A DNA stretch of 64,000 nt from Streptomyces cavernae (lineage in GTDB: Bacteria; Actinomycetota; Actinomycetes; Streptomycetales; Streptomycetaceae). The stretch covers positions 372,001 through 436,000 of the forward strand of contig NZ_RPDJ01000001.1 of the NCBI RefSeq assembly GCF_004023625.1, in the 5' to 3' direction. This document shows positions 2,877-21,204 of the stretch, piece after piece. The notes under the pieces are model-generated. The model ran no database searches. It was not told where the DNA came from and worked only from the letters and a program-made list of their open reading frames with translations. Both the position numbers and the translations under genes were made by a program. Within the stretch, counting starts at the first letter, position 1; every line of letters starts with the position of its first letter.

Positions 2877-3220
2877 GGTTTGCTCGGGCGCAGCTCCGCG
2901 CTGCGGAGAGCCGTACGGGACGATCGGCATCGGGTACTCGTCGGCTCGTGGGTCGCGAGGGAGCGAGTCCAGGGTCGCGACCTTGTCATGACTCCGCCAT
3001 AAGTGCATGCGCCGATGTTGGCCGAGTTGTTCCGATGTGATCGGGGGGCGTATGGGATCAGGAGGTGTCCGTTCCGTTCGCGTGTTCCCGAACGCGTCCG
3101 TCCCTCCCGAATCGCTGTCAACTCCCGTATTACTAAGCTAAGTTGGGGGCTATCGGTAAATCTTGCGAAACCTCATAGCACTGAAGCATCAGGCACCCTC
3201 CTGACGGGAGACAGCAGCAC

Positions 3221-4033
3221 GTGGACACCACCGGACCACGCACCGCCGAAAGCCTTGCCGCACGCTTCCATGACGTCGATTCCTCCGCCGTCCCCGAGGA
3301 CTTCATCGCCTATCTGCGGAAGATGGAGGAGAGCGAGAGTGGCCGCGCGGTGCGGGAGGCCACCTATCGCGCCGTGGAGGCCGCCGAGAGCAGGGGAGCG
3401 GACATCGGGTGCGGCGCCGGACGCGCCGTCGCGGATCTCGTACGGCTCGGGAAGGACGCCGTGGGGGTCGACAGCAGTCAGGCCATGGTCGACGCGGCCC
3501 TGGCCCGGTTCCCGCACTGTCACGTTGTCAGGGGCAGCGCCTTCGAGTTGCCGTTCGAGGACGCTGAACTGTCGTGGTACCGGTCCGAGCGGACCTTCCT
3601 TCACTTCCCCGATCCCGCCGAGGCGCTGTCCGAGGCCCGCAGAGTGCTGAGGCCGGGCGGGACGATCGTTCTCGCGGACCCCGATCTCGCGTCGATGGTG
3701 GTGAGTTCGCGGATCCCGGAGACGACCGACGCGGTCAAGGACGCGTTCTGCTCGGCCGTCCCGAATCCCCACGCCGGCACCCACAACGCCTACCACCTCG
3801 CCGACGCCGGATTCACCGACATCAAGGTCGTTCCCGTCATGGCGACCCTGAACGACCACGCGTCCGCGTTCGGCGTGGTGCTGGAGCCGGCCCTGACGGC
3901 TGCTCTCACCCAGGGCGTCGTCAGCGAGGAGGCGGCGGCGCGGTGGAAGGACGACCTGGGCGATCTCTCCCGCCGGAACGCCTTCACCGCGACGGCGACC
4001 TTCTTCGTCACCACGGCCCGCCTGGCGTCGTAG
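3221..4033 (+). CDS. Class I SAM-dependent methyltransferase
   Basis: A 270-residue protein with a Rossmann-type SAM site: motif I ADIGCGAGRAVADL (about residues 65-78), the acidic strand end VGVDSSQAMVDAAL, and a post-motif FLHFPDPAEALSEARRVLRPGG typical of UbiE/Methyltransf_11 enzymes. The acceptor substrate cannot be told. The start is GTG at 3221; the roughly 100 bp upstream are distinctly AT-rich and probably hold the promoter. It is transcribed toward the convergent biosynthetic operon and separated from it by 84 bp, so I do not count it as part of that operon. Confidence 0.75.
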   Translation: MDTTGPRTAESLAARFHDVDSSAVPEDFIAYLRKMEESESGRAVREATYRAVEAAESRGADIGCGAGRAVADLVRLGKDAVGVDSSQAMVDAALARFPHCHVVRGSAFELPFEDAELSWYRSERTFLHFPDPAEALSEARRVLRPGGTIVLADPDLASMVVSSRIPETTDAVKDAFCSAVPNPHAGTHNAYHLADAGFTDIKVVPVMATLNDHASAFGVVLEPALTAALTQGVVSEEAAARWKDDLGDLSRRNAFTATATFFVTTARLAS

Positions 4034-4117: not shown

Positions 4118-5800
4118 TCAGCTGAGCGCGGGCCGAAGCCGTTCCCGGAGCAGGTTCTTGCGCACCTTGCCGGTCTCGTTGCGCGGCAGTTGGGGTAGGA
4201 GTTCCAGGCGGGACGGCTGGCACCATTCGCTCATGCCGAGCCCGTCGAGCCAGTCGCGCAGGCCGTCGAGGGTGGGCGTCCCCTCCCCCGGTACGACGAC
4301 CGCGCAGGCGAGTTCGCCGCCGTGGCCGTCCGGGTAGCCGACCAGGGCGACGTCCCGTACGTCGGGGTGGTCCAGCAGCGCCGACTCGACGTCACTGACC
4401 GGGATCATGATGACGCCGATCCGGTCCTCGGCGCGGCCGTGCAGCCGGATGCCGCCGTGGCCGTCCGGCGCCGCCAGGTCACCGGTGTCATACCAGCCGT
4501 CGTCGTGCTCGGTGAGCACGGTCAGCCGGCCGTCGTCCCGGCCCCAGGTGGCCAGGCACAGCGAAGGGCTGCGGACGTAGAGACGCCCGGGTTGCTCGTC
4601 GCTGATCGGGTGGTCGGCCCGCAGGTCGATCTCGTGGCCCGGGGCACAGCGCCCGACGGTGCGGCCGGCCAGCTCCGGGTGCTCTCCGGCGCGGGTGAAG
4701 ACGTTGGCGCCCTCCGTCATGCCCCAGCCCACGTCCAGCGGGATTCCGAAGGTCTCGGTCACCCGCCTGAACAGTGGCTGCGGGACGATGGTGCCTCCCG
4801 CGCGGATGATCCGCACCGTGGGCAGTCGCTGCGACGTGCGTTCCATCGCGTCGATCAGGACGGAGAGGAAGACCGGGACGATGACCATCCAGCTGACCTG
4901 GGCCTGTGCCAGGAAGGGGATGACGGCCTCCGGCTCCCAGCGGTCCGTCACGACCGCGCAGGCCCCGCGGTGCAGCGGCATGAAGATGCCCATGTTGAGG
5001 CCGACGATGTGCGTCGCCGCGTTCGGTGAGTAGACGCGGCTGTCCGGGCCGATGCCGTCGGCGGCTGCCACCGGGGCGTACCAGGCGTACGAGGTGTTGA
5101 GGGTGTGCAGGACGGCCTTCGGCTCGCCGGAGGTACCGGACGTGAACAGCACCAGGGAGACCCGGTCCGGGTCCACGACGGACGGATCCGGCAGGGTGTC
5201 GTGCTCCGTCTGCTCGAAGTACTCGCGGAAGTCCAGTTCGCCGTCCGTGGTCCGCTCGTCCGCGCCAGTGGTCCGTTCGTCCCCGTCCGCGGTCCGCTCG
5301 CCGAGCACCACACGGTGACGCAGTGCGGGCAGCCTGGGTGCCATCTCGGCCAGCGCCGCCGCGTGTTCGAAGTTGTCCCACCGATCGACGGTCATGCAGA
5401 CGACGGCATCCAGCCGGCGGAGCATCCGCTCCAGCTCACGGGGGCGGAACGCGCACATGATCGGCGCCGCGACGGCCCCGAGCCGGGCGCAGGCCAGTAC
5501 CAGCGGTCCGACCTGCCAGACGTTCGGCAACTGCATCGCGACGACCTGACCGCTGCGCACCCCCAGCGCGTGCAGCGCGCCGGCGAAGCGGTCCACGTAC
5601 TCGGCGTACTGCGCGTAGCTCAGCTCCAGGGTGCCCCGGCCGGCCTCCCACACGAGAAGGGCGGGGGCGTCGGGGGTCTCGGCACGCCACCGCGCCAGGT
5701 CGTCCAGGATGGTGCCTGGGCGCCAGTGGTCCTCCTTGCGGTACTGCTCCACGGTGGTGGCGGAGGGGCGCAATGTGGTGATCGGGTTCACAGTCTTCAC
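4118..5800 (-). CDS. AMP-forming acyl/aryl-CoA ligase (ANL superfamily), last gene of the biosynthetic operon
   Basis: A 560-residue adenylating enzyme related to cyclohexanecarboxylate/fatty-acid CoA ligases. Visible are the phosphate loop LVLFTSGTSGEPKAV, the hinge region GWYDTGDLA and the C-terminal catalytic lysine region NETGKVRKN. Around 5233-5310 it carries a short imperfect repeat of the unit D-E-R-T-T. It lies 69 bp after the reductase gene, behind an AT-rich spacer, so it may have its own promoter or belong to the operon. In context it could activate a pathway intermediate, hydrolyse or export-prime the final acid, or be the ATP-dependent diazotase; ligases of this superfamily do diazotization in cremeomycin-type pathways. 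Sequence alone cannot decide. Confidence 0.8.
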   Translation of the reverse strand: MKTVNPITTLRPSATTVEQYRKEDHWRPGTILDDLARWRAETPDAPALLVWEAGRGTLELSYAQYAEYVDRFAGALHALGVRSGQVVAMQLPNVWQVGPLVLACARLGAVAAPIMCAFRPRELERMLRRLDAVVCMTVDRWDNFEHAAALAEMAPRLPALRHRVVLGERTADGDERTTGADERTTDGELDFREYFEQTEHDTLPDPSVVDPDRVSLVLFTSGTSGEPKAVLHTLNTSYAWYAPVAAADGIGPDSRVYSPNAATHIVGLNMGIFMPLHRGACAVVTDRWEPEAVIPFLAQAQVSWMVIVPVFLSVLIDAMERTSQRLPTVRIIRAGGTIVPQPLFRRVTETFGIPLDVGWGMTEGANVFTRAGEHPELAGRTVGRCAPGHEIDLRADHPISDEQPGRLYVRSPSLCLATWGRDDGRLTVLTEHDDGWYDTGDLAAPDGHGGIRLHGRAEDRIGVIMIPVSDVESALLDHPDVRDVALVGYPDGHGGELACAVVVPGEGTPTLDGLRDWLDGLGMSEWCQPSRLELLPQLPRNETGKVRKNLLRERLRPALS

Positions 5801-5869: not shown

Positions 5870-8089
<2,220 letters not shown>

Positions 8090-8093
<4 letters not shown>

Positions 8094-10153
8094 CTTCTCC
8101 CCGCGCCAGATGTCCGATCAGTGGTCAACCCTTTCGGTCCTGGTCCCGTCTCCAGTCCCAGTACCGCCCGCGCTATCGCGTCCGAGTCCTCCAGCGTCAC
8201 CGAGCCCACGCCCGGTCTGATGCCTACCGCCGTCACCCAGCGAACGCCCTCCGTCGGCACCCCGAACGCGAACCGGCGAGGGTGCGCCCGCCCCGACACG
8301 TCCAGCAGGCGGGGCGCGCCGTCGGTCACCGCCATCCCGCCCGTCTCGTGCGCCTCGTGGCCGCCCGGCCGGTACGGGACGCACCCGCCCTCCGCCAGCA
8401 GCCCCCGCAGCAGCGGGTCGGCGTTGCGCCGCAGGTCGATGTCGGGCAGCCGCGCCTCGACGAGCGCCCTGACCAGCACCGGCGACTCCGACACCCCTTC
8501 CGCGTCCACGAGGAAACCGGGCTCACGGGGATCGCCTTCGTGCGGATCACCCGCACCGTCCGTCGGACGCACCCGCATCCCCGGACCGACCACCTGAATC
8601 ACGTCCGCCTCGATCAGCGCGATCAGCTGCTCGATCCGGAACGCGGGTGGGCCGATCGACGTGAACGCGTTCAACGGCGTGTACCAGCCGTCCAGTTCGG
8701 CCCGGTGCGACTCTCCGGACACCCCTCCGTGGTCGACCACAAGCCGGACCTCGTTGCGCAGGTCCCGCAACGCGTCCAGCGCCGCCTTCAACGGGCCGTT
8801 CACATTGCCGAGTCGGGCGGCGACGACGTCCTGCCGCAGATATCCCAGCAGCCAGCGCCGGAATTCGGCGCGGTCCGTGAAGTGCCGGTCTCCGTATGGG
8901 CGTTCAACGCGCCGCCAGTCCCATCGCTCGTCCGGCGGTACGTCGTACCGGTCGAGGAGCGCCGACTCGTCGTCGCCGTGCGCGAGACGGGACCGTACGA
9001 ACTCGGCTGCCGCCCGTGGGCCTTGGGCGGCCCGGAGCCACGCCTCGTAGTAGACGGTCCGCACCTCGCGGTCGATCAGGGGCCAGATGTCCGCACGGAA
9101 GCAGACGGGGTGACGCCGCAGGCCGGCGATGACCTCCGGGGTCAGGAAGCGGGGGTGGTGGCGGCCCAGCGCACCCTTCTCGTTCTCGCCGCGTGCGTGG
9201 TAGGGCACTCCGCGTCGCGAACCGGCGTACAGCACCGGCTCGTTGCCGCTCGGGATGTACACGAGCCCGGCACCCCGGCCGTCCTCGTCGTGGCCCCGTT
9301 TGAACGTGCCGCCGCGGCCCTCGGTGAGCAGGGCGAGCTGGTCGAAGAAGTTCAGGCCGAGTCCGCGCAGGGCGACCGGGGTGCCGGGGCGGATTCCGCT
9401 CAGGTCGGCGTCGGCCGGGTTGGCGGGCCCCACGTAGGACACACCCGTACCCGTACCTCTGTCTGTACTTGCGTGGCGGGCTGCGAAGGAGCGCAGGGCT
9501 TCTTCCTCCGGGCTCGGGGTCAACTGGCCGTGGCCCAGGGCCAGTACGACCGCGCCCAGGCCGGTGAGCGGTTCGCCGTCCGCCAGGGTCACCGACTGGG
9601 TGCCGTCCGGGTCGTCGGCCAGTGCGATCGCCCTCGTCCGGTGGGTGTGGACCGTGACCTCGGGCGGGGCGGTGCGTAACAGGCGCCCGAAGACCCACTC
9701 CAGGTAGTGGCCATGGAAGGCGCGGGTCGGATAGGTGTCCGGGCCGAGGCGGCGGGCCTCCGCCAGGACCGGGGCCGGGTACACCCCGGGTCCCGGTCCC
9801 GATCCCGTTGCCAGGGTGCGGGCCCACTTGTACAGGCTCGGGCCCGGTACCGACGGGCCCGAGCACGGCACGCTGTCGTCGGTGAACAGGGTCACCTGGG
9901 AGGCGACCGTGTTCATCAGAAGCTCGGACGGCTGGTCGGTGCGCCACACCGCGCCCGGTCCCGGCGGGTACGGGTCGACGAGATGGATTACGACTGGGCG
10001 GTCGGCCTCGCCCGCGTTGGCGCAGAGCCGCTCCAGTACCGAGAGCCCGCGCGGACCGGCGCCGACCACGCACACGACGACGGCATCGCGGGGGTGGCCG
10101 GGGGCGGCCGGCGTACCGGTCGCCCCCGAAGAGCCTGGTTCGGGTCCGGTCAT
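8090..10153 (-). CDS. creE: Large FAD/NAD(P)-binding monooxygenase, CreE-type L-aspartate oxidase candidate
   Basis: A 687-residue flavoprotein starting with a dinucleotide fold (VVCVVGAGPRGLSVLERL, residues about 26-43), then VDPYPPGPGAVWRTDQP and a second motif VVLALGHGQ, as in the pfam13454 FAD-NAD(P)-binding family. Homologues of this type paired with a PcaB-like lyase convert L-aspartate through N-oxidation to nitrosuccinate, the source of nitrous acid in cremeomycin and related diazo pathways. It overlaps the lyase by 4 bp (ATGA) and the upstream dehydratase-like gene by 4 bp. The role is inferred from family and pairing. Confidence 0.75.
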
Positions 10154-11076
10154 TCCTCGCCCAGCCCGTGGCGCCAGCTCGGCCGCAGCGGCTTCCAGCC
10201 GAGTTCCTTACCCGCCCTGGCGTTCGACGCGCCGGCCGCCGCGGTGAGCTGGTGGGCCATGAACCAGCCGAGCAACCGGGGGGCCGACGCCGCGGGGATC
10301 GTGGGCGGCTCCGGGGCCTCCAGGGCCTGGGCGTAGTGGGGCAACCACTGGGCGGCCGGGGCCGGTTCGTCGTCAGTGATGTGGAAGACGCCGGTTGCCT
10401 CCGACTCCACGGCCGCAGCCGCCGCGCCCACGGCGTCCTCCACATGCAGGAACGAGGTGACCCCGGTCCCGCCCTCGGGCAGCGGGACCTTGCCCGCCAG
10501 TACCCATTGCGCGGACGCGCCGGTACGGGCGTACGAGGTGCCGGGGCCGTACAGCGAGCCGTACCGCAGCACTGCGCCGCTCAACTCGGGTGAGGCGCCC
10601 AGGACTTGGGCCTCCAGGTCGGCGACCGCCCGTACGGTGGCCGCCCAGCCGGGGTCTGGGGCGTCCACCCACAGCGGCGCGTCCTCGTCGACGACCGGGT
10701 CTCCGGTCGGCGCGGAGGCGAAGGAGATGGACTGCGCGACCAGCCGCCGGGCACCGGCCGCGCGGGCCGCCGCGATCAGGTTGGCGGTGCCCTCGGTGCG
10801 CAGTCGCGCGGTCCGGGTGAAGGCGTCCGGGGGGTTGTCGAACATCACGCGCAGCGCCGACATCTGGTGGACGACCACCTCGGGGCGTGCCTCCGACACG
10901 GCGGCCAGCAGCGCTTCGCGGTCGAGCGCGTCGGCGACCACGATCGTGTCCGCCTCCGGAGCACGGGTCCGGGACTCCTCCCGTACCAGCGCGCTCACTT
11001 GGTGGCCCCGCGCCCGCAGCGCGCCCACCAGGGGATGGCCGACCACACCGGTGGCACCCGCGACAAGTATCCGCAT
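10150..11076 (-). CDS. NAD(P)-dependent epimerase/dehydratase-family protein
   Basis: A 308-residue extended-SDR protein with the N-terminal nucleotide-binding motif LVAGATGVVGHPLV and conserved blocks VVHQMSAL, LRYGSLYGPG and VFHITDDEPAP. I see no clear Y-x-x-x-K pair, so the catalytic chemistry may differ from true epimerases. It sits between the CreE-type gene and a small protein of unknown family in a tightly packed operon. In nitrite-dependent pathways that remove an aryl amino group, a reductase must replace the diazonium by hydride; this NAD(P)-binding protein is a candidate, but a dehydration or tailoring role is equally open. Confidence 0.7.
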   Translation of the reverse strand: MRILVAGATGVVGHPLVGALRARGHQVSALVREESRTRAPEADTIVVADALDREALLAAVSEARPEVVVHQMSALRVMFDNPPDAFTRTARLRTEGTANLIAAARAAGARRLVAQSISFASAPTGDPVVDEDAPLWVDAPDPGWAATVRAVADLEAQVLGASPELSGAVLRYGSLYGPGTSYARTGASAQWVLAGKVPLPEGGTGVTSFLHVEDAVGAAAAAVESEATGVFHITDDEPAPAAQWLPHYAQALEAPEPPTIPAASAPRLLGWFMAHQLTAAAGASNARAGKELGWKPLRPSWRHGLGEE

Positions 11077-11081
11077 GTCGT

Positions 11082-11678
11082 TCAGTCCTCTTTGTTGTCG
11101 TCTTTGTTGTCGTCGTGCGCAAGGGGGTCGTGATTGAGGGGGGTGCGTACGCGCATCAGCAGGCGACACGCTTTGTCGCCGTCGCGCAGGCACGACTCGG
11201 CGCGGTTCTCCGTCAGGGTGACGCCGAGGCCCTCGGACCAGCCCGCGTGGATGTCGGTGCACGGGCAGCGGTAGCCGTCCAGTGAACCGGCCATCCGCAC
11301 CATGGTGACGGCGAAGCTGCGGCGGAGCGTGAGGACGATCAGACCGTCCCGCTCTGTCACGTCTTCGACCTCCGTGGACGCGTTGCGCAGCTCCGGCGGG
11401 AACATCCGGTCGCCGCAGTCGTCGTAGCGGCGGCGGAGTTCCTCCAGGTCCTTGCCGGTGTCGCCGGTGTCGGGGAGCGGGCCGCAGAGGCGGCCGACGC
11501 GCTGTCCGACGTGCGTCGCGACCTTGCGCAGCGCCTCGGCGTTCAGCTCGTTGGCCGCCTCCTGCCCGAACCGGCTCGCCACCGCCTGGTACCAGTTCGC
11601 GTCGTGCTGCCACCACAGCCGGTACGCCTCGCTCGCCCGGGCACGGTGGTTGACGCCGTCACCCGCACCCGTGCTCAT
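11082..11678 (-). CDS. Small protein of uncertain family (DUF6125 / thiazoline-carboxylate hydrolase-like)
   Basis: A 198-residue protein with an N-terminal helical part (AYRLWWQHDANWYQAVASRF) that resembles DUF6125 or ATC-hydrolase-like proteins, and a C-terminal part with cysteines in YRCPCTDIHAGW and ESCLRDGDKACRLL. The tail is strongly acidic (DDNKDDNKED). No catalytic function is recognisable. It begins inside the stop of the upstream ligase (ATGA overlap), so it is made together with the pathway enzymes. The operon lacks an obvious hot-dog dehydratase or thioesterase, and this protein is a candidate for one of those missing steps; that is speculation. Confidence 0.6.
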   Translation of the reverse strand: MSTGAGDGVNHRARASEAYRLWWQHDANWYQAVASRFGQEAANELNAEALRKVATHVGQRVGRLCGPLPDTGDTGKDLEELRRRYDDCGDRMFPPELRNASTEVEDVTERDGLIVLTLRRSFAVTMVRMAGSLDGYRCPCTDIHAGWSEGLGVTLTENRAESCLRDGDKACRLLMRVRTPLNHDPLAHDDNKDDNKED

Positions 11679-13378
11679 GGCTGCCCCTTGACGGCTGAGG
11701 CGACGGAGGCGGTGAAGCGGTCGCGCATCACTCGCTTGAGGACCTTGCCGGTGGCGCCCTTGGCGACGTCGTCGGGCCTCATGCGCAGGGCGCGGGTGAC
11801 CGGGGGGAAACCGGCGGCCCTGAGGGCGGTGTTGACGCGGTCGGTCAACTCCGCGTCGATGAAACCCTGTTCGGCCACCGCCTCGGCTCCCTCCTCGTCG
11901 GCGAGTTGGAGCAGCGCGTACGCCTCCGCCACTCCGTCGCCGTCCCAGTCGGCCCGTACGCCGTCGTCGGCGACCCCGACGACCGTGCAGTCCGCCAGTT
12001 CGGGCAGTTCGCGCAGCAGGAGTTCCTCGGTGCGGGTGCTGAAGACGACGCCGGAGCTGGTACGGATGGCGTCCGGGGCGCGGTCGAGGTGGTAGAAGTT
12101 GCCGTCCTCGTCCTGGTGGGCGAGGTCGCCGGTGAGCCAGTAGCCGCCGAGTCGCATACGGTTCCAGGTCACCGAGTCGTTCCAGTAACCAGGCGTGAGA
12201 GTGGGGGACTTGAGGCCTAGGCGGCCGATCTCGCCGGGCGGCAGCGGGGTGCCGTCCTCGGCGAGTACGGCGGCCTCGGCGAAGCTGATCGGCCTGCCGA
12301 CGCAGCGCGAGTACGCCGACGTGTCCTTGGTGTGCCGGTTGTGGAAGACGGAGTAGCCGGCCTCGGAGGAGCCGAGCCCGTCGACGAAGACCGAGCCCTC
12401 GACCCGGGTCCTCCGCAGGTCCTTGCCGATCGTCTGGTGGCTGCCGTGCCGCACGAGGGCCCGGATGTGCGCTTCGTGGGCCGCGTCCCCGGTGTTGAAC
12501 CACACCTGCACGCTGGACAGGTCGCGGGTCGTCAGGTCCTCGGCGGCCATCTCGCCGAAGGTCCCGGCGAAGGCCAGCACGGTGGTGGGCCTGAACTCCT
12601 CGATGGCGTCCAGTACGTCGGTGCCGCGCTGGCTGGAGAGCAGCTTGATGTCGGTGCGCAGCAGGAGGCAGTACAGCAGCGTCGCCACCATCGCGTTGTG
12701 GGCGCCCGGCAGTCCGACGAGGGTGCGTTCCATGTCGGTGCCGGTGGAGTAGCGCAGGCGGTGCAGCTGCGCGTACATCAGGGTCTGGTGGGTGTGCGGA
12801 ACTCCCTTGGGCATACCGGTGGTTCCGGACGAGTGCGAGATGAGCACCGGGTCTGTCGGGTCGTGACGGTACGGGTAGGAGGCCGGGAGTGAGGCGCGGT
12901 GTTCGGGGCGGATGTCGGCGGCGGTCGCGCAGAAGCTGAGCGCTGATCCGGGGCCCGCGAGTACGTCGTGGTGGGCGCGGTCCGTGAAGGCGCCCACGGC
13001 ACCCTGCCGTCGTACGTACTCCCGCGCGATGTCGGGCGGCAGGTTGCCGTTGACGAACGACGGGATCGCGCCGAGGGAGGTCAGCGCCAGGAAGTTCACC
13101 GCGAACTCGGCGCTGGAGTAAGAGTGGAGGGCGACGGGGTCGCGGGGACGCACACCCTGGGCGGTGTACCAGCCCGCGTATGTCTCGACGACCTCGCCCA
13201 GCTCCCCGAGGGTGAGCTGGGCGGGGCAACTGCCGTCGGGCGCCTGCCAGTTGCCGTCCACGCGGAGTACGACCTCGTCGCGTGGACGGTCGTACGCCGC
13301 CAGCCGCGCCAGGACGTTTCCGGCGCCCAGCGCGGGGTCGGAGCAGATCCGGGCCCGCTCCTGCCTACTGATGAGCAT
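11675..13378 (-). CDS. AMP-dependent ligase, candidate ATP-dependent aryl diazotase or aryl-acid ligase
   Basis: A 567-residue ANL enzyme: LISHSSGTTGMPKGV (phosphate loop), WFNTGDAAHEAHI, YWLTGDLAHQDEDGN (hinge) and KGATGKVLKRVMRDRF with the C-terminal catalytic Lys. It is distinct from the other two ligases of the operon and is translationally coupled to the gene next to the CreE/CreD-type pair. CreM of cremeomycin and AvaA6 of avenalumic acid biosynthesis are ligase-superfamily enzymes that use ATP to activate nitrite for diazotization, so this is my first choice for that role. Loading of the aromatic acid is the alternative. Start ATG at 13378 overlaps the upstream gene by 14 bp. Confidence 0.75.
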   Translation of the reverse strand: MLISRQERARICSDPALGAGNVLARLAAYDRPRDEVVLRVDGNWQAPDGSCPAQLTLGELGEVVETYAGWYTAQGVRPRDPVALHSYSSAEFAVNFLALTSLGAIPSFVNGNLPPDIAREYVRRQGAVGAFTDRAHHDVLAGPGSALSFCATAADIRPEHRASLPASYPYRHDPTDPVLISHSSGTTGMPKGVPHTHQTLMYAQLHRLRYSTGTDMERTLVGLPGAHNAMVATLLYCLLLRTDIKLLSSQRGTDVLDAIEEFRPTTVLAFAGTFGEMAAEDLTTRDLSSVQVWFNTGDAAHEAHIRALVRHGSHQTIGKDLRRTRVEGSVFVDGLGSSEAGYSVFHNRHTKDTSAYSRCVGRPISFAEAAVLAEDGTPLPPGEIGRLGLKSPTLTPGYWNDSVTWNRMRLGGYWLTGDLAHQDEDGNFYHLDRAPDAIRTSSGVVFSTRTEELLLRELPELADCTVVGVADDGVRADWDGDGVAEAYALLQLADEEGAEAVAEQGFIDAELTDRVNTALRAAGFPPVTRALRMRPDDVAKGATGKVLKRVMRDRFTASVASAVKGQP

Positions 13379-14156
13379 GGGTGTGGCTCTCCGTGTCGGT
13401 GTCGGTGTCGGTGTCGGTGCGGTGGGCGGCGGCCAGTTCGAACAGGCTCCGGATGCTGCCAAGTTGGTCGGCAGCCCCGCTGGTGGAGTTGATCGGCACC
13501 TGTGCCCCGGCGACGGCGACGGCGACGGTGGCAGGGGCGGAGGTGTCGTGGTCGGCGCGGCCGAGCAGGATCGCCGCCGCCAGGCCCGCCTTCGCGGGGA
13601 GGGACGGGACCGGACGCCCGCTGTCGGCGGCCAGTTCGCGGTGTACGGCGGCCACGCGTTCGCCGCCACCGAGTTCCACGCCCAGCACGAGGACCCGGTC
13701 GAGCTCCGGGTCGTCGAGCAACACGTCGGCCATGGCCAGGAGTTCGGTGAGCGGGTCGGCGAGCGTGGAGAGGCTGAACATCTGGCCGGTGATGCCGAAC
13801 TCCCGGCTCATGTGTCCCAGCACGGAGTTGGCGGTGGCCTGCATGAACAGCAGCGGGTTGTGGACCCGCCCGGACACCATGCGCGAGCTGGCCAGGTCGG
13901 CCGTGGTGGTATCGCCCGTCAGGCTCGCCAGCGCGACGGCCGTACGGTCGCCGTCCCCGGGGTGCGCGGTCAGACACCTCGCGGCGACCTCGTACGCCAG
14001 CGGACTGAACGCCGACTCCACGAAGCCCGGCAGCTTCGGCAGCGCGATGTCGTCGTCCCGGCCGGTGCCGTGGCTCGCGGTGGCGGCGGCGAGGACGGTG
14101 AGGGCGGTGGGGGAGGTGAGGGGGGAACGCGGGGCGGTTGTGTGGGTCGTTGTCAC
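13365..14156 (-). CDS. Short ketosynthase-like / chain-length-factor-like protein
   Basis: A 263-residue protein resembling the N-terminal thiolase-fold half found in the Ketoacyl-synt_2 family of aryl-polyene clusters, with FVESAFSPLAYEVA, NPLLFMQATANSVLGHMSRE and GITGQMFSLST. It lacks the full Cys-His-His set of an active KS, so it is probably a partner (CLF-like) of the intact KS whose stop it overlaps (GTG start at 14156). The tail is built from a hexanucleotide run (13394-13421) coding alternating Asp-Thr before an His-rich end. Partner role is inference from size and adjacency. Confidence 0.7.
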   Translation of the reverse strand: MTTTHTTAPRSPLTSPTALTVLAAATASHGTGRDDDIALPKLPGFVESAFSPLAYEVAARCLTAHPGDGDRTAVALASLTGDTTTADLASSRMVSGRVHNPLLFMQATANSVLGHMSREFGITGQMFSLSTLADPLTELLAMADVLLDDPELDRVLVLGVELGGGERVAAVHRELAADSGRPVPSLPAKAGLAAAILLGRADHDTSAPATVAVAVAGAQVPINSTSGAADQLGSIRSLFELAAAHRTDTDTDTDTESHTHAHQ

Positions 14157-15454
14157 GGCCGCTCCAGAACGAGTGCGGTGTTGGCGCCCCCGAAGGCGGC
14201 GTTGACGGTGAGGGCTCGGAGCGGTTCGGTGGGGCGTGGTTCGTTCGGCACGTAGTCGAGGTCGCACTCCGGGTCGGGGCTGCCGAATCCGGCGGTCGGC
14301 GGGAGTACACCGTTCAGCAGGGCCAGCATCGTGATCACGAACTCCACGACGCCCGCGGCTTCCAGGAGGTGGCCGGTGGTGCTCTTCGTCGAGCTGACCG
14401 GTATCGACTCGGCGAACTTCGGGAAGGCGGCGCGCAGACCCCGTGTCTCGGCGCCGTCGTTGTACTTGGTGCCGGTGCCATGGGCGTTGATGTAGTCGAG
14501 GGACGCCCCGTCCGGGTCCCCGGCCAGCCGCATCGCCTGCTGGACGGCGCGGGCGAGGCCGGCGCCCTCCGGGTGCGGCTGGGCGATGTGGTGGGCGTCG
14601 GTGGCGGCGCCCCAGCCGACGACGGAGGCGAGCGGCCGGGCCCCGCGGCGCCGGGCGTGCTCGGCGGACTCCAGTACGACGGCGGCGACCCCGTCGCCCA
14701 GCAGCAGCCCGCTGCGCTCGGCACTGAACGGCCGCACCATGCCGTCCCGCGCCAGCGCCCGCCCGGAGTCGAACTTCCCGAACGTCTCCTCCTCGACCAG
14801 ATACCCACCCGCACAGACGGCGACGTCGATCCGCCCCGAGGAGATCAGCCGACAGGCGTGAATGATCGCGGCGGCGGACGCGACACAGGCATTGGTGAAG
14901 GCAAGCCGGGTCCCGACCAGCCCCAGCCCGTCACCCAACAACTCGGCCAGCTGGGCAGGAACGGCGTCAGCGAGATGTGCCCCGGGGGCACGGGGCTGTG
15001 ACATTTGCGGCTCCGCCGCGTGGGCGCGACGAGCCACATCGGACCCGCGCCCGATGTACGACAGCTCGCCCGGAGAGGCCTCCACAGAACCCCCGGCGCC
15101 CCCCCAATACCGAGTAACGCTCCGATGATCCCCGGCAACACCCAACAGCACCGCCGCCTGGCCATCAGCCCCGAGCCCGGCCATGCCCAGCGCAGCGTCA
15201 CCGCAGCGCTGGAGCGCATCCCGCAGCGCCCACCCGTCGACCCCGTCGGGACTGTCGGACCCAGCCGGATCGGCGGGCGCGACGGCGGCAACCGCCGTCC
15301 GGTACGGCCCCGTGTCGAACCGTGTCGTCGGCCGGAACGCGGGCACGCCCGCGAACACCCCGCGCCGCAGGGCCTCCGGGCCCACGCCGAACGCGGTCTG
15401 TACGCCGTATCCGGTCACCGTCACCGCACGCGCTTCGCGCACTTCACGCGTCAT
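14153..15454 (-). CDS. Beta-ketoacyl-ACP synthase (ketosynthase)
   Basis: A 433-residue FabF-type ketosynthase with an intact triad: Cys190 in AFTNACVASAAA, His325 in NAHGTGT and His362 in STTGHLLEAAG, plus Lys357. It should condense malonyl units with an aryl starter on the ACP, together with the CLF-like protein. Start ATG at 15454 is chosen because the ATG at 15466 would overlap the ACP gene more; 15454 gives an 11-bp overlap. Residues about 136-153 (RRAHAAEPQMSQ) are encoded by a copy of an interspersed DNA repeat and look foreign to the family. Confidence 0.9.
   Translation of the reverse strand: MTREVREARAVTVTGYGVQTAFGVGPEALRRGVFAGVPAFRPTTRFDTGPYRTAVAAVAPADPAGSDSPDGVDGWALRDALQRCGDAALGMAGLGADGQAAVLLGVAGDHRSVTRYWGGAGGSVEASPGELSYIGRGSDVARRAHAAEPQMSQPRAPGAHLADAVPAQLAELLGDGLGLVGTRLAFTNACVASAAAIIHACRLISSGRIDVAVCAGGYLVEEETFGKFDSGRALARDGMVRPFSAERSGLLLGDGVAAVVLESAEHARRRGARPLASVVGWGAATDAHHIAQPHPEGAGLARAVQQAMRLAGDPDGASLDYINAHGTGTKYNDGAETRGLRAAFPKFAESIPVSSTKSTTGHLLEAAGVVEFVITMLALLNGVLPPTAGFGSPDPECDLDYVPNEPRPTEPLRALTVNAAFGGANTALVLERP
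14997..15047. repeat. Interspersed Streptomyces repeat, copy 1, inside the ketosynthase gene
   Basis: About 50 bp with the core GCGGCTCCGCCGCGTGGGCG matches a second copy at 16070-16121 in the same orientation with only a few differences. It contains the self-complementary GCGGCTCCGCCGC. It is read through in frame as part of the KS coding sequence. The motif is of a type I recall as common in Streptomyces intergenic regions; the copy number elsewhere cannot be seen here. Confidence 0.75.
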
Positions 15455-15743
15455 CCTGGGCGCCACCCTTCTGGGCGGTACGCAGGTACTCGGTGAGCCG
15501 GCCGAGCGAGGTCATCCCGGCGATGTCCTCGTCGGAGGGCTCGACGATCAGGCCGTACCGCTCCTCCACCACGTGGAGCAGCCACACCAACCCGAGGGAG
15601 TCCAGGACGAGTTCGGCGTCCTCGCCCAGGTCGTCGGGCAGGCCGGGGAAGACCTTGCGGTCGGAGAGCAGCTCCCGTACGGAGTCGGTGGTGATGTCCG
15701 TGGTGATGTGGTCGGGGCCGGTGGCCCCCGTGCTCGTGCTCAT
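15444..15743 (-). CDS. Acyl carrier protein 1
   Basis: A 99-residue acidic carrier protein with the phosphopantetheine Ser49 in ELVLDSLGLVWLLHVVEE. A Thr-rich leader (MSTSTGATG) precedes the helical domain. It overlaps the second ACP by 4 bp upstream and the KS by 11 bp downstream. Tandem ACPs beside a KS/CLF-like pair suggest that one carries the aryl starter and the other the malonyl extender, or that both share the growing chain. Confidence 0.85.
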   Translation of the reverse strand: MSTSTGATGPDHITTDITTDSVRELLSDRKVFPGLPDDLGEDAELVLDSLGLVWLLHVVEERYGLIVEPSDEDIAGMTSLGRLTEYLRTAQKGGAQDDA

Positions 15744-16015
15744 GCCTTCGCACCCCGTCGGACGACCTCGGCGACGAGCCCGCCCAGGGTCAGCGTGGCC
15801 AGGGGCTCGATGTCGGTGTCGGGGATCTCGACACCGAACCGCGACTCGAGTCGCAGGGTGAGTTCGATCAGGCTCAGGGAGTCGACATCCAGCCCGCCGA
15901 CGGTCACCGGGCTGTCGTCCGTGATGCCGTCGCGGCTGGTCAGGATGTTCATCTCGTCGATGACCGAGGTCAGGACGAACTCGCGGATCTCGTCTTCCAG
16001 GGTCGACGTGCTCAT
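15740..16015 (-). CDS. Acyl carrier protein 2
   Basis: A 91-residue carrier protein with Ser46 in GGLDVDSLSLIELTLRLE as the phosphopantetheine site. It differs clearly from the neighbouring ACP, so the two are not a recent duplication, though both start MSTST. A GAGATATAGATC leader precedes it, and the 140-bp gap upstream to the ligase gene holds an interspersed repeat copy, the largest spacing within the first part of the operon. Confidence 0.85.
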   Translation of the reverse strand: MSTSTLEDEIREFVLTSVIDEMNILTSRDGITDDSPVTVGGLDVDSLSLIELTLRLESRFGVEIPDTDIEPLATLTLGGLVAEVVRRGAKA

Positions 16016-16155: not shown

Positions 16156-17544
16156 TTACACAGCGGAGCGCAACGCCGCGGCCTGCCGTACCAACTTCCC
16201 GTTGGACGTGCGCGGCAGCGCGTCCAACAGCCGTACGACGCGCGGCACTTTGTAGTCGGCCAGCCGTTCGCGGCACCATCGCGACAACTCCTCGGCGGAC
16301 GGCTGATCCGAGCCCGCGCGCACCGCGACGTACGCCTCGGTCACGTCCTCGTGGACCAGGACCGCCTGTTCGACGGCCGGGTGTTCGCGGAGTACGTTCT
16401 CCACCTCGGTGAGGTCCACCTTGAGGCCGCCGATGACGACGAGGGAGTCCGCGCGGCCCAGCACGTGCACCGCGCCGGTGGCGTCCAGCGTGGCCCGGTC
16501 CCGGGTGTGCAGCCAGCCGTCGGCGTACTGGGTGCCGCCCGAGTCGAAGAGGTACGGCGACTCCTCGAGGGCGACGTCCAGTTCGCCCCGGTCGACGCGG
16601 ACGACGACACCGGGCGCCGCCCGGCCGACCGAGGGGCGCAGGGTGCCGCCGACGTCGATGGCGACGATGCCGGTCTCCGTGGTCCCGTAGGCCTCGCCGA
16701 CCCCGACGCCGTACCGCTGCGCGAAGGCGGCGGCGACCTGCGGGGGCATGATCTCGCCGCCCGAGACCGCGATCCGCAGGTCGGGGAGGGCGGGGGGATC
16801 GGTGGCGGCGGTGAGGAGTTCGTAGTGGGTCGGTACGCCGAACACGGCGGTGACCCGGTGTTCCCGTGCGGTCCGCAGGATGTCGCGGGCGGAGACGCGG
16901 GGCGCGAAGACGACGGAGACTCCGGCGGCCAGGGAGTGCAGCAGGCCGCCGATCAGGCCGAAGCTGTGCGCCGTCGAGCTGAGCAGCAGCAGCCGGTCGC
17001 CCTCGGCCGGCATGCCGGGGACCCCGGCGAACCTGTCGACCTCGGTGGCGAGCGACCGGGCGGTCCTGCCGATGACTTTCGGCCGTCCGGTGGAGCCGGA
17101 GCTGAACTGGACGAGGCGGTGCCCGGTGGTGGCGGACCGGCCGGATCTTCGCCGCTCGGTGACGACCTCGTACTCGGACCGGAAACCGAACGTGGCCCGG
17201 ACGTTGGAGCCGGCGCTGACCATGAACTGCGGTCGGCAGGAACCGCAGAGCGCGTCCACCTCCGGCGGCTTGAGCCGGAAGTCGAAGAGCAGCACCTGGG
17301 CGCCGAGCTGCCACAAAGCGAGCAGTACTTCAAGCTGTGTGAAGCTGGGCGGGGTCCGCAGTCCCACGGTGGAGCCCGGCCCGATGCCGTACCCGGCGAA
17401 GACGGCGGCCTGCTTGGCCACGCGCTCCTGTAAATCGCTGCGGGTGAGCGTCTGCTGTTGGTGCGTCAGGTACGGTAGGCGGTCGTCGTGCGCGTCGAAC
17501 AGCCGCCGCACCAGATCGGCGAGGTCTGAGTCGAGTTCGCCCAT
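16156..17544 (-). CDS. AMP-dependent aryl-acid ligase, likely starter-loading enzyme
   Basis: A compact 462-residue adenylating enzyme: RLVQFSSGSTGRPKV (phosphate loop), GEAYGTTETGIVAID and the C-terminal catalytic Lys in RTSNGKLVRQ. It lies between the 3,4-AHBA-forming genes and the ACP genes, so loading of 3-amino-4-hydroxybenzoate onto an ACP is the most likely task, by analogy with stand-alone aryl adenylation enzymes. Six bases separate it from the GriH-type gene. The specificity pocket cannot be interpreted by eye. Confidence 0.8.
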   Translation of the reverse strand: MGELDSDLADLVRRLFDAHDDRLPYLTHQQQTLTRSDLQERVAKQAAVFAGYGIGPGSTVGLRTPPSFTQLEVLLALWQLGAQVLLFDFRLKPPEVDALCGSCRPQFMVSAGSNVRATFGFRSEYEVVTERRRSGRSATTGHRLVQFSSGSTGRPKVIGRTARSLATEVDRFAGVPGMPAEGDRLLLLSSTAHSFGLIGGLLHSLAAGVSVVFAPRVSARDILRTAREHRVTAVFGVPTHYELLTAATDPPALPDLRIAVSGGEIMPPQVAAAFAQRYGVGVGEAYGTTETGIVAIDVGGTLRPSVGRAAPGVVVRVDRGELDVALEESPYLFDSGGTQYADGWLHTRDRATLDATGAVHVLGRADSLVVIGGLKVDLTEVENVLREHPAVEQAVLVHEDVTEAYVAVRAGSDQPSAEELSRWCRERLADYKVPRVVRLLDALPRTSNGKLVRQAAALRSAV

Positions 17545-17550
17545 CGGACC

Positions 17551-18783
17551 TCAGACCTCCTTGCAGAACTCGCCGATGGGCAGCCCCACATGGCGCTTGT
17601 CGGCGGCCAGATAGCCGAGCAACTCGTCGCCCGTCCGCAGCTCGGTGACGTTGAGGACCTTCCCGCCGGGGCCGAGCACCCGTACGTGCCAGTCGTCCTG
17701 CACGGTCAGGCTGACCAGCCGGCCGTCCTCGGCGTGGGTGCGGATCTCCAGGAGCGGCCTGGATTCGAGCTTCGCCCGGCCGACCACGACCCGCCGGGTG
17801 CGCCCGTCGGCGCCGACCGCGAGCAGCGCGCTGCCCGAGCCGACCTCGCTGAGGTAGTTGGTGCGGTTGTCGGGGCCGAGAGTGTACGAATGCAGGGCCC
17901 CCGCGTTGACCCTGAACGGCCTGGTCGGCATGTAGGGCAGGGGGTGGGTCTCGCTGCAGCACAGCACGAACCCGGAGGAGTAGGAGCCGACGAGGATGCC
18001 CTCGTCCTCCTCGAAGTGCGAGCAGGTGTCCACGCAGACCCGGTCGCCCAGTCCGACGTGCCGGATGCTCTCCACGGTGAGGGTGGACAGCTCGAGCTGG
18101 GGCGTCGTCGCCTCCAGCAGGCGGGCCAGCGCGAAGACTTCGTCGGCGCTGCGCGGTGTGAACAGGATGCCGTCCGAGCCGCGCTCCAGCACGTCGAAGA
18201 CGATGGACGCCTCCTCCAGGCCGTCGACGACCGTCACGAGCTTGCCCTCGGCGGACTCGGCCGCGGCGAGCACGATCTCCAGCGGGATCTTGGTCGGGTC
18301 GGCGAAGTGGATGACCGTGTAGGGCAGCACCATGGCGCCCGCGCACGACAGTCGGAGGGTGCGGTCGTCCCGTACGTCGATGAACCCGGAGACGGGAGTG
18401 CCACCAGCGGTGGCGCCCGCGCGGTGGGCGGCGGCGAGGGCGTCCAGCTCTTCCTGGGTGGAGAACTTCCGCAGGAGTACGTCGACTCCGGTGCCGGAGG
18501 GGGAAGTGCCGATCCCGGAGGGGGACTTGGCGTCCTTCTCCGGCGCCTTGCCCTCCTTGTCGCCGGACTTCTTGGCGGTGGCCAGTGACGTATCGGGGGT
18601 CGGCGCCGGAACCGGCGTCTTGCCTCCGGCGACCAGGACCCGGGTGACGGTCGGGGGCAGGGTGCCGAGCAGTTCGGCGTCGGAGGCCACGACTCCGGCC
18701 ATCCGCGCGTGGATTGCCGCGTCCACCACCGCCTGGAGCTGCGGACGGGGAACCTCACGCAGGTCGATCCATGCGAACCTCAT
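17551..18783 (-). CDS. griH: GriH-type dehydroquinate synthase II-like enzyme (3,4-AHBA formation)
   Basis: A 410-residue protein of the archaeal-type 3-dehydroquinate synthase II family: FAWIDLREVPRPQLQ at the start, GSDGILFTPRSADEV, DRVCVDTCSHFEEDEG and SETHPLPYMPTRPFRVNAGA. GriH of grixazone biosynthesis, from this family, converts the GriI aldol product to 3-amino-4-hydroxybenzoate. The neighbouring aldolase overlaps by 4 bp, which makes the pair diagnostic. Unusual is a Pro/Ser/Lys/Gly-rich stretch of about 45 residues (about 55-99, 18487-18621) between two early strands, probably a loop insertion. Shikimate-pathway use is unlikely given the pairing. Confidence 0.88.
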   Translation of the reverse strand: MRFAWIDLREVPRPQLQAVVDAAIHARMAGVVASDAELLGTLPPTVTRVLVAGGKTPVPAPTPDTSLATAKKSGDKEGKAPEKDAKSPSGIGTSPSGTGVDVLLRKFSTQEELDALAAAHRAGATAGGTPVSGFIDVRDDRTLRLSCAGAMVLPYTVIHFADPTKIPLEIVLAAAESAEGKLVTVVDGLEEASIVFDVLERGSDGILFTPRSADEVFALARLLEATTPQLELSTLTVESIRHVGLGDRVCVDTCSHFEEDEGILVGSYSSGFVLCCSETHPLPYMPTRPFRVNAGALHSYTLGPDNRTNYLSEVGSGSALLAVGADGRTRRVVVGRAKLESRPLLEIRTHAEDGRLVSLTVQDDWHVRVLGPGGKVLNVTELRTGDELLGYLAADKRHVGLPIGEFCKEV

Positions 18784-19616
18784 GCCACTCCTGCCACGAT
18801 CGTCGAGTAATTGGCCATACGCATGCCGTCGGCGATGCCGACGCCGTTGTTGCCGTCGCTGTCGCCGTGGACGACCGCCGAGAGGTGTGCCACCAGGGCG
18901 GCGGGCGTGGGGGAGGAGAAGATCCGCCTGCCGACGGCCAGCCCCCGGCAGCCGCTGGCCATCACGGCGGCGCCGTACTCGACGAGGTCGGAGCCGTCGG
19001 GTGGGCCGCCTGCGGCGAGGACGGGTATGGGGCTGCCCGCTACCACCTCCGCCATCCGGTCGATCGGCAGGGCGACCGATGTCTTCACCATGTCCGCGCC
19101 CAGGTCGGCGGCGACGTTCGCCAGGTGTGCGAGAAGGGCGGGATCGCGCGGGTCCTTGATCCGGGGGCCGCGCGGATACACCATCGCGATCAGGGGCATG
19201 CCCCACGCGTCGCAGGAACGGGCCACCGCTCCGAGGTCGGCCAACTGCTGGGCCTCGGTGTCGGATCCGATGTTCACATGGACGCTGACCGCGTCCGCGC
19301 CGAGAGCCAGCGCCTCCTCGACATCGGCGACCAGCACCTTGGCGTGCACATCGGCGGAGCAGGCGGTGCTGGCGCTCAGGTGCACCACCAGCGCGCAGTT
19401 CCTCAGGATGTCCGGCGCGATGGAGCGGGCGCGTCCCTTGTGGACGATGATCCCGTCGGCGCCGCCGGCCACCAGAGCGCGCAGCAGGTCGTCCCACTTG
19501 TCGGCGGGGACGATCGGACCGTCCGAGACGCTGTGGTCGAGTGGGACGAACAGATGTCGGTTGTCACCCGCGAGCGAAAGCCTTCTCAAGCGTAATTGCT
19601 TGCCCGTTCTCAGCAT
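18780..19616 (-). CDS. griI: GriI-type DhnA-family aldolase (first step to 3,4-AHBA)
   Basis: A 278-residue class I aldolase of the DhnA/AroA' family with VPLDHSVSDGP (residues 24-34), Tyr147 in MVYPRG and the Schiff-base Lys178 in DMVKTS. GriI joins aspartate-4-semialdehyde and dihydroxyacetone phosphate to an aminoheptulosonate-like C7 product, which GriH aromatises to 3-amino-4-hydroxybenzoate. It is the first gene of the operon. Codon 8 is TTA (19593-19595 on the complement), so expression should need the bldA tRNA and thus be developmentally timed. No strong ribosome site precedes the ATG at 19616. Confidence 0.9.
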   Translation of the reverse strand: MLRTGKQLRLRRLSLAGDNRHLFVPLDHSVSDGPIVPADKWDDLLRALVAGGADGIIVHKGRARSIAPDILRNCALVVHLSASTACSADVHAKVLVADVEEALALGADAVSVHVNIGSDTEAQQLADLGAVARSCDAWGMPLIAMVYPRGPRIKDPRDPALLAHLANVAADLGADMVKTSVALPIDRMAEVVAGSPIPVLAAGGPPDGSDLVEYGAAVMASGCRGLAVGRRIFSSPTPAALVAHLSAVVHGDSDGNNGVGIADGMRMANYSTIVAGVA

Positions 19617-20560: not shown

Positions 20561-20574
20561 CAGGTGTCAACGGT

Positions 20575-21204
20575 GATCGTCAGTTTTAGAAGTCCTGACA
20601 AAGGCGCTGCAGGTGTCTGTAGGTGATGAGGCAGGTGGCGAGGCCGAGGAAGGCTTCGCGTGGATGTCGTCGCGTCGCTGCCATCGGATGCGCAGGCGAC
20701 GGAAGCCGTGCAGCCAGGCAATGGTGCGTTCGACGACATACCGGAAGTTGCCCAGGCCGGAGCCGTGGGGTTGGCCTCGTTCGGCGATGACCGGGCGGAT
20801 ACCGCGCTGCCACAGCAGGCGCCGGTATTTGTCGTGATCGTAGCCGCGGTCGGCGAGCAGGGCGTCCGGCCGTCGCCGTGGCCGGCCCACGACCCCGGCC
20901 ACCGCCGGGACCTTGTCGAGCAGAGGCGGCAGTTGGGTGACGTCGCCCACGGTTGCCGCCGGTCAGCGACACCGCGAGCGGGACGCCCTGTGCGTCGGTG
21001 AGGACGTGGTGCTTGCTGCCCGGCCGTGCGCGACCGACCGGGCCGGGACCGCTTTTGGGCCCCGCCGGGCGGCCCGCACGTGGGAGGAGTCGATCACCGC
21101 CCGCGACCAGTCCAGCTTCTTCACCGCCCGCAGCTTCTTCAGCAGCACCAGGTGCAGTTCGTCCAACACTCCGGCCTCGTTCCACGCGGCCAGACGGCGC
21201 CGGC
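20575..21204 (-). mobile_element. Degenerate IS5-family insertion sequence (transposase relic)
   Basis: Pieces of a DDE transposase are spread over three minus-strand frames: WNEAGVLDELHLVLLKKL and DWSRAVIDSSHVRA (about 21090-21190), RARPGSKHHVLTDAQGVPL (about 20985-21045), LLADRGYDHDKYRRLLW and NFRYVVERTIAWLHGFRRL (20700-20870), and the end HLQRLCQDF with stop at 20586. At least three frameshifts have occurred and the N-terminal part is missing. The 3' end, near TTTTAGAAGTCCTGACAAAG, probably holds one terminal repeat; the other end is lost at the AraC join. It cannot encode an active enzyme. Confidence 0.8.

What the first reader, a model, noticed from the sequence alone, without database searches (positions are those of the whole stretch)
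11675..13378. Candidate diazotase among three unlike ANL ligases
The operon has three ligases of 462, 567 and 560 residues with little visible similarity. One should load the aryl acid; that leaves two for other ATP-dependent steps. The 567-residue protein is translationally coupled toward the CreE/CreD-type pair, so nitrite activation is plausible. The third, at the end of the operon, has no obvious job.
Basis: inference. Interest (0 to 1): 0.6.

Follow-up and report, generated by a model that had tools for sequence, protein, structure and literature searches.

The report
Avenalumate diazotase plus unexplained third ligase
The suspected enzyme does look like a known type that uses nitrite and ATP to turn an aromatic amine into a diazo group, inside an avenalumic acid gene cluster; the less expected part is a third ligase that, with a methyltransferase, seems to take the place of the cluster's usual export pump in some Streptomyces.

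Summary
In detail: three minus-strand ANL ligases of 462, 567 and 560 aa, 20-23% identical pairwise. The reading of the 567-aa protein is supported, but the enzyme type is known. It scores 1031.8 (cut-off 975) on NCBIfam's AvaA6 '3-aminoavenalumate diazotase' model, is 65.9% identical to CmaA6 and 50% to Tri17, and groups with them in a tree. The operon has counterparts of the 13 non-transporter genes tabulated for the avenalumic acid cluster; the 462-aa ligase stands where AvaA1, the aryl-acid loader, stands.

Not in that table are the third ligase (4118-5800, 'LIG3') and a convergent methyltransferase ('MT', 3221-4033). LIG3 lies beside A7 or A8 in all 13 genomes where I found it. In 38 genomes collected by A6 alone, LIG3 (10) and an AvaC-like exporter (25) never co-occur (Fisher p=6e-7). 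The contrast recurs in independent pairs on a tree (sign test p about 0.03). G350, outside the 38, has both. Seven loci keep A7-LIG3-MT intact without a full ava operon around them. I propose that LIG3 activates the finished aryl-dienoic acid; that step is inference.

The parts
11675..13378 (-). A6: AvaA6/CmaA6-type ATP-dependent diazotase, 567 aa
   Evidence: NCBIfam NF058622 1031.8 bits vs cut-off 975; 65.9% to CmaA6, 50.0% to Tri17; clade 100/100 with both
16156..17544 (-). A1: counterpart of AvaA1, the ligase that loads 3,4-AHBA on a carrier protein, 462 aa
   Evidence: place in the gene series of the ava/cma table and in relatives; separate clade; not compared with the AvaA1 sequence itself
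4118..5800 (-). LIG3: third ANL ligase, 560 aa, not in the published ava/cma gene table
   Evidence: AMP-binding PF00501 and PF13193; beside A7 or A8 in 13 of 13 genomes where found
3221..4033 (+). MT: class I SAM methyltransferase, convergent with LIG3
   Evidence: PF08241; in 3 of 199 genus genomes, the same three as close LIG3
10150..11076 (-). A7: 3-diazoavenalumate denitrifying reductase
   Evidence: NCBIfam NF058621 508.9 bits vs cut-off 400
8090..10153 (-). E: CreE-type aspartate monooxygenase of the ANS nitrite pathway
   Evidence: PF13454; place between A7 and D as in the table and relatives; no NCBIfam match
6579..8093 (-). D: nitrosuccinate lyase (CreD type)
   Evidence: NCBIfam NF052556 651.4 bits vs cut-off 650
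5870..6586 (-). A8: FabG-like ketoreductase
   Evidence: FabG-type SDR models, e.g. NF009466 236.7 vs 222
11082..11678 (-). B: AvaB counterpart, unknown function, 198 aa
   Evidence: no Pfam match at 1e-5; conserved between A6 and A7
13365..14243 (-). A5: chain length factor (start approximate)
   Evidence: place between KS and A6; conserved in relatives; no Pfam match at 0.001
14153..15466 (-). A4: ketosynthase (start approximate)
   Evidence: PF00109 and PF02801
15444..15743 (-). A3: carrier protein, by place only
   Evidence: conserved in relatives; no Pfam match at 0.001
15740..16015 (-). A2: acyl carrier protein
   Evidence: PF00550
17551..18783 (-). H: 3,4-AHBA synthase (DHQ synthase II family)
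   Evidence: PF01959; NCBIfam DHQS II subfamily 569.1 vs 375
18780..19616 (-). I: 3,4-AHBA pathway aldolase (DeoC/LacD family)
   Evidence: PF01791

Best explanation
The 567-aa protein is the diazotase of an avenalumic acid (ava) cluster. By the published scheme it uses ATP to AMPylate nitrous acid made by E and D. The activated nitrite is attacked by the aromatic amine of 3-aminoavenalumic acid, giving 3-diazoavenalumic acid, whose diazo group A7 replaces by a hydride. A1 (462 aa) loads 3,4-AHBA on a carrier protein, and A2-A5 with A8 build the diene. LIG3 (560 aa) is an accessory enzyme that, with MT, most likely acts on the finished acid by adenylating it for conjugation. This would make a product other than free exported avenalumate and explain why such clusters have dropped the AvaC-like exporter. 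The diazotase identity is shown by homology; its activity and the whole LIG3 role are inferred. I put the diazotase part at about 0.95 and the LIG3 role at about 0.4; the confidence field refers to the first.
For: Diazotase: curated equivalog score above cut-off; best solved relatives are CmaA6 and Tri17 (titles; Tri17 also named in the review passage); clade 100/100; P-loop, Glu339, Asp418 and Lys545 are invariant in 22 sequences, the window's included, and aligned with CmaA6 and Tri17. Context: counterparts of the 13 non-transporter ava genes. LIG3: beside A7 or A8 in 13 of 13 genomes where found; intact with A7 and MT in 7 of 7 loci without a full ava operon; dN/dS median 0.257, range 0.17-0.425, for those copies; never together with AvaC in the 38 genomes collected by A6.
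Against: No enzyme activity was tested. The third nearest solved relative, 9xb8, is deposited as 'Fatty-acid-CoA ligase FadD' and no call told its function. D passes its cut-off by only 1.4 bits. The model of A6 is poor (mean pLDDT 51.2). For LIG3: nothing shows its substrate. Its nearest relative outside ava lies in what looks like a 3,5-AHBA operon, which could point to an aminohydroxybenzoate instead. G350 holds both LIG3 and AvaC. S. neyagawaensis (L088) has neither.
Confidence: 0.93

Rival explanations
1. LIG3 is a second loader for the aryl starter (3,4-AHBA), parallel to A1.
For: Its closest relative outside ava in the tree (L007, 44.5%) sits at the end of an operon with a RifM-type gene above cut-off and DAHP-synthase-, DHQ-synthase- and shikimate-dehydrogenase-like genes, so the clade may read amino-hydroxybenzoates. 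That this is the 3,5-AHBA pathway is recalled.
Against: A1 was seen in 35 of 38 named loci; the other three (L057, L061, L065) begin downstream of it. LIG3 stands beside A7, not beside H, I or A1, in the seven loci without a full operon (in G401 A8 and E fragments stand between).
Confidence: 0.2
2. LIG3 is the nitrite-activating enzyme and the 567-aa protein a CoA ligase.
For: Only the logic that three ligases need three jobs.
Against: Tree, family score and nearest structures all place the 567-aa protein with diazotases and LIG3 elsewhere.
Confidence: 0.02
3. The LIG3-AvaC exclusion is positional: a segment A8-LIG3-MT recombines into clusters and removes AvaC, with no link in function.
For: In L056 AvaC lies between D and A8, next to where LIG3 lands in other clusters, and a gap of similar size stands before A8 in many LIG3-free clusters. 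G350's A8 is 94% to the window's while its A7, E and D are 75-80%. A8 fragments lie beyond MT in L059.
Against: AvaC is also gone, or a fragment, in main clusters whose LIG3 lies elsewhere in the genome (L067, L068, L072, L073, L090).
Confidence: 0.3
4. LIG3 is a plain CoA ligase for recycling or breaking down the product.
For: Match below cut-off to the cyclohexanecarboxylate-CoA ligase model (314.1 bits, cut-off 792.3); fold matches to aryl-AMP and aryl-CoA ligases, Z about 38.
Against: Its A8 stretch is two residues shorter than in the DhbE, salicylate-AMP and feruloyl-CoA ligases aligned, and lacks their Gly-Gly. The few neighbours scanned include no beta-oxidation gene.
Confidence: 0.25

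Closest known systems
AvaA6 of the avenalumic acid cluster, Streptomyces sp. RI-77
   Same: Passes the curated AvaA6 equivalog model; same partner genes, in the order in which the table lists them
   Different: Its sequence was not fetched here, so no identity was measured; nothing functional known to differ
CmaA6, ATP-dependent diazotase, Kutzneria albida (8ztz, 9ijf)
   Same: 65.9% identity over 552 residues; same core motifs
   Different: Natural substrate 3-aminocoumaric acid; its cluster has cmaG and cmaR and lacks avaA8 and avaC
Tri17 of triacsin biosynthesis (9bq0, 8tf7)
   Same: 50.0% identity, same clade
   Different: Acts in a different pathway, triacsin (review passage)
ava and cma clusters as tabulated in PMC10777205
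   Same: Counterparts of the 13 non-transporter ava genes are in the window
   Different: Window genome has no AvaC match at E 1e-150 and the window no match to the MFS gene that I take for avaF; it has LIG3 and MT, which the table does not list
DhbE, salicylate-AMP and cyclohexanecarboxylate-CoA ligases (for LIG3)
   Same: ANL fold and core motifs; 26-28% identity to DhbE and the salicylate-AMP ligase
   Different: A8 stretch two residues shorter than in DhbE and the salicylate-AMP ligase; separate clade

Membership tests
AvaA6-type ATP-dependent diazotase | Score above the curated NCBIfam equivalog cut-off | tested here: met
   NF058622: 1031.8 vs 975
AvaA6-type ATP-dependent diazotase | Clusters with characterised N-N forming ANL enzymes, not with CoA ligases | tested here: met
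   15-row clade, 100/100, with CmaA6 and Tri17; it also holds 9xb8, of function not told by any search; several branches were flagged as long; CreM not included
AvaA6-type ATP-dependent diazotase | ATP-site residues: P-loop, Mg-binding Glu (assumed counterpart of CreM E352), ribose Asp, C-terminal Lys | tested here: met
   Invariant in 22 sequences, aligned with CmaA6 and Tri17; role of E352 from the review passage
AvaA6-type ATP-dependent diazotase | Nitrite- and ATP-dependent diazotization in vitro | not testable with these tools
   needs protein
avenalumic acid (ava) cluster | H and I, KS-CLF pair and diazotase (the search criteria in PMC10777205) | tested here: met
   the CLF by place and conservation only
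avenalumic acid (ava) cluster | A7 reductase, A8 ketoreductase, ANS genes E and D | tested here: met
   E by Pfam and place, no NCBIfam match
avenalumic acid (ava) cluster | MFS transporters avaF and avaC (not biosynthetic) | tested here: not met
   No AvaC-like match in G000 at E 1e-150; no avaF-like match in the window (rest of genome not searched for it). Both queries are L056 genes named from family and place
avenalumic acid (ava) cluster | Makes avenalumic acid | not testable with these tools
   needs expression
acyl/aryl-CoA ligase (for LIG3) | P-loop, Glu, Asp and C-terminal Lys of ANL enzymes | tested here: met
acyl/aryl-CoA ligase (for LIG3) | A8 stretch with Gly-Gly, as in the feruloyl-CoA and aryl-AMP ligases aligned | tested here: not met
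   GRAEDRIGVIMIPVSDVE, two residues shorter; that this loop touches pantetheine is recalled
cyclohexanecarboxylate-CoA ligase (for LIG3) | Curated score cut-off | tested here: not met
   314.1 vs 792.3

The most novel reading that the evidence does not exclude
A7, LIG3 and MT form a movable tailoring unit of avenalumate clusters. It turns the free acid into an undescribed conjugate or methylated product and so replaces export by AvaC. LIG3 belongs to an ANL branch with a shortened A8 stretch and may hand its acyl-adenylate to an acceptor other than CoA.
Probability: 0.3. Interest if true: 0.6.

Novelty: new variant of a known kind. Interest (0 to 1): 0.4.

Why it matters
The diazotase itself adds one more member to a known family and suggests that this cluster runs the diazotization-dependent deamination route. 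The LIG3-MT unit matters more: it predicts that a subset of avenalumate clusters, including those of S. scabiei, S. stelliscabiei and S. europaeiscabiei, make something other than free avenalumic acid, and names the two genes to test. Why bacteria take the costly diazo route to simple phenolic acids is called unclear in the review (PMC11705231, passage); a different end product in some lineages would bear on that.

Tried and rejected
Reading LIG3 as the diazotase and A6 as a CoA ligase: rejected by tree and family score. Structure as evidence for A6: model too weak to use (mean pLDDT 51.2); from its search I used the entry titles only. LIG3's model is moderate (65.8) and its fold matches do not separate AMP from CoA ligases; no pocket was read from it. 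Neighbours of ten distant LIG3-like genes were listed as ORFs only and gave no clear substrate. In the second locus of G139, six ORFs besides MT were scanned: four had matches (mandelate-racemase-like, glycosyl hydrolase 95, GntR, binding protein) that look unrelated, two had none. A solved-structure search with MT gave distant methyltransferases, best E 2e-10.

Papers. PMC10777205: text parts 1 and 2 of 4 and passages; its supplementary Figures S1-S2 with the 134 clusters could not be opened and may show LIG3 or MT. PMC11705231: passages. PMC13061610 and PMC11429834: passages. Searches: listings; none of the listed titles and abstract beginnings speaks of LIG3 or MT in an ava cluster, and for only the top 20 and 12 of many were listed. 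The primary AvaA6 paper (Angew. Chem. 2022) was not seen.

Limits and dropped rows. Four of 38 named loci (L057, L065, L078, L093) end too early to score AvaC locally; the genome-wide search covers them, but a copy cut by a contig end can be missed. L093 also fell out of the concatenated tree (43 of 44 rows), which is a quick tree (LG+G4, SH-aLRT only); G377 is not in it because its ava cluster was not fetched. The AvaC-like gene of G396 (L060) has one internal TGA and was counted as present; fragments in L072 and L073 were counted as absent. G397 (L061) was counted as without LIG3 although a remnant lies there. WIN, G350 and G377 entered through LIG3, and G091, G108, G128 and G007 through an A6 search, so the unbiased count is the 38. 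Fisher's test ignores relatedness; the paired test is the safer figure. MT of G350 is matched over 47% only. Across all 78 LIG3 pairs dN/dS ranges from 0.17 to 0.805, median 0.33. The ANL tree carries warnings on long branches, 9xb8 and Tri17 among them. My note gives the A8 loop as 3-4 residues shorter; recounted, it is two shorter than the reference ligases and three shorter than A6.

Full report
What is there. The operon lies on the minus strand from about 19616 down to 4118. The three ligases are real ORFs of 462, 567 and 560 aa with 20-23% pairwise identity. The genes follow the order in which the ava/cma table of PMC10777205 lists them: I, H, A1, A2, A3, A4, A5, A6, B, A7, E, D, A8. A3, A5 and B have no Pfam match above cut-off and are named by place and conservation. 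I read parts 1 and 2 of 4 of that paper and passages by search.

The 567-aa protein. It passes the curated cut-off of NCBIfam's AvaA6 3-aminoavenalumate diazotase model (1031.8 vs 975) and A7 passes its own (508.9 vs 400); D passes narrowly (651.4 vs 650). E has no NCBIfam match and is named from Pfam and place. Its nearest solved structures are CmaA6 and Tri17 (Tri17 also in a review passage), then 9xb8, deposited as a fatty-acid-CoA ligase, of function not told by any search. In a tree of 51 ANL proteins it groups with these three at 100/100, while LIG3 and A1 fall elsewhere. Core ATP-site residues are invariant in 22 sequences, the window's included. The mechanism, AMPylation of nitrous acid and attack by the amine, is taken from PMC10777205; no activity was measured here. 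In the window's own genome the next best hit to A6 is 31% identical.

Which species carry it. A scan by A6 gave 38 named loci, 37 titled Streptomyces and one a Streptomycetaceae MAG. Among the titles are S. scabiei, S. turgidiscabies, S. stelliscabiei, S. europaeiscabiei, S. caniscabiei and S. ipomoeae.

The third ligase. Close LIG3 (86% or more; the next hits are 45% or less) was found in 7 of 392 genus genomes and in 10 of the 38. Four genomes are in both sets by identical coordinates, so there are 13. In all 13 it lies beside A7 or A8 (in G401 beside A8 fragments), with MT convergent to it; in G350 MT is partial. MT was found in 3 of 199 genus genomes, the same three as close LIG3. In seven genomes (G377, G401, G403, G404, G408, G409, G426) the LIG3 locus has no full ava operon around it, and A7, LIG3 and MT are there without internal stops. 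Three of these loci hold matched fragments of other ava genes: A2 in G403 and G408, and I, B, E and A8 in G401; the other four showed none. LIG3 copies of these seven show dN/dS 0.17-0.425, median 0.257. In S. scabiei the only A7 found at E 1e-100 is the one beside LIG3.

LIG3 against AvaC. AvaC here means the MFS gene between D and A8 in L056 (PF07690), taken as avaC from its family and place. I had seen that LIG3-bearing clusters lacked it and expected AvaC-poor clusters without local LIG3 to have LIG3 elsewhere; this was written down only afterwards. Of six such clusters (L067, L068, L072, L073, L088, L090) five have LIG3 elsewhere, but two (L067, L090) were already known, so three of four were true predictions. 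In the 38 genomes AvaC is in 25 and LIG3 in 10, never both; 3 have neither, one of them with a LIG3 remnant (Fisher 6.0e-7). Seven further genomes, chosen by LIG3 or A6, add one with both, G350. On a quick tree of 43 clusters each trait changes at least 9 times; in 8 independent pairs AvaC goes the opposite way in 5.8 on average and never the same way, sign test median p 0.031.

Movement of the unit. G350's A8 is 94% to the window's while its A7, E and D are 75-80%; L088, which lacks both LIG3 and AvaC, has A8 at 90% against 72-79% for A7, E and D. This fits an A8-LIG3 segment that recombines between clusters, and is also the main non-functional reading of the exclusion.

What LIG3 may do. It keeps the P-loop, Glu, Asp and Lys, but its A8 stretch is two residues shorter than in the DhbE, salicylate-AMP and feruloyl-CoA ligases aligned and lacks their Gly-Gly. 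Its closest relative outside ava is in an operon with a RifM-type gene (348.3 vs 246.65) that looks like a 3,5-AHBA pathway (recalled). Standing with A7 rather than with the AHBA or loading genes favours a substrate late in the pathway. I therefore prefer activation of the finished acid, at about 0.4, against a second AHBA loader, a CoA ligase for recycling, or a merely positional link.

Verdict. The variant with LIG3 and MT in place of AvaC is not in the gene table I could read, and the listings show no paper on it; the primary ava paper and the supplementary cluster figures were not available, so it may have been seen before.

Noticed in passing
window 2910-3008 (-); L058 20487-21542: Remnant of a Rieske-type oxygenase gene that is near full length beside several related ava clusters (L058, L060, L061, L062, L063, G091).
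   Followed up: partly
window 20567-20950 (-): Transposase DDE-domain fragment upstream of the ava operon (PF01609).
   Followed up: no
L012, L015, L016, L017: LIG3-like proteins in which the aligned P-loop is lost and the C-terminal catalytic lysine is replaced; possibly ANL pseudoenzymes.
   Followed up: no
L090 and L101 (S. scabiei): A7 is missing from the main ava cluster; the only A7 found in the genome sits beside LIG3 and MT about 1 Mb away.
   Followed up: partly
L131 (S. europaeiscabiei): Eroded ava locus: fragments of I, B, E and A8 around intact A7, LIG3 and MT.
   Followed up: partly
L063, L066, L067, L068, L069 and others: A number of ava clusters lack E and D locally, as PMC10777205 also reports for about half of its set.
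   Followed up: no
L059 20622-20800: Two short A8 fragments lie beyond MT, as if A8 had been partly duplicated when the LIG3-MT segment arrived.
   Followed up: no
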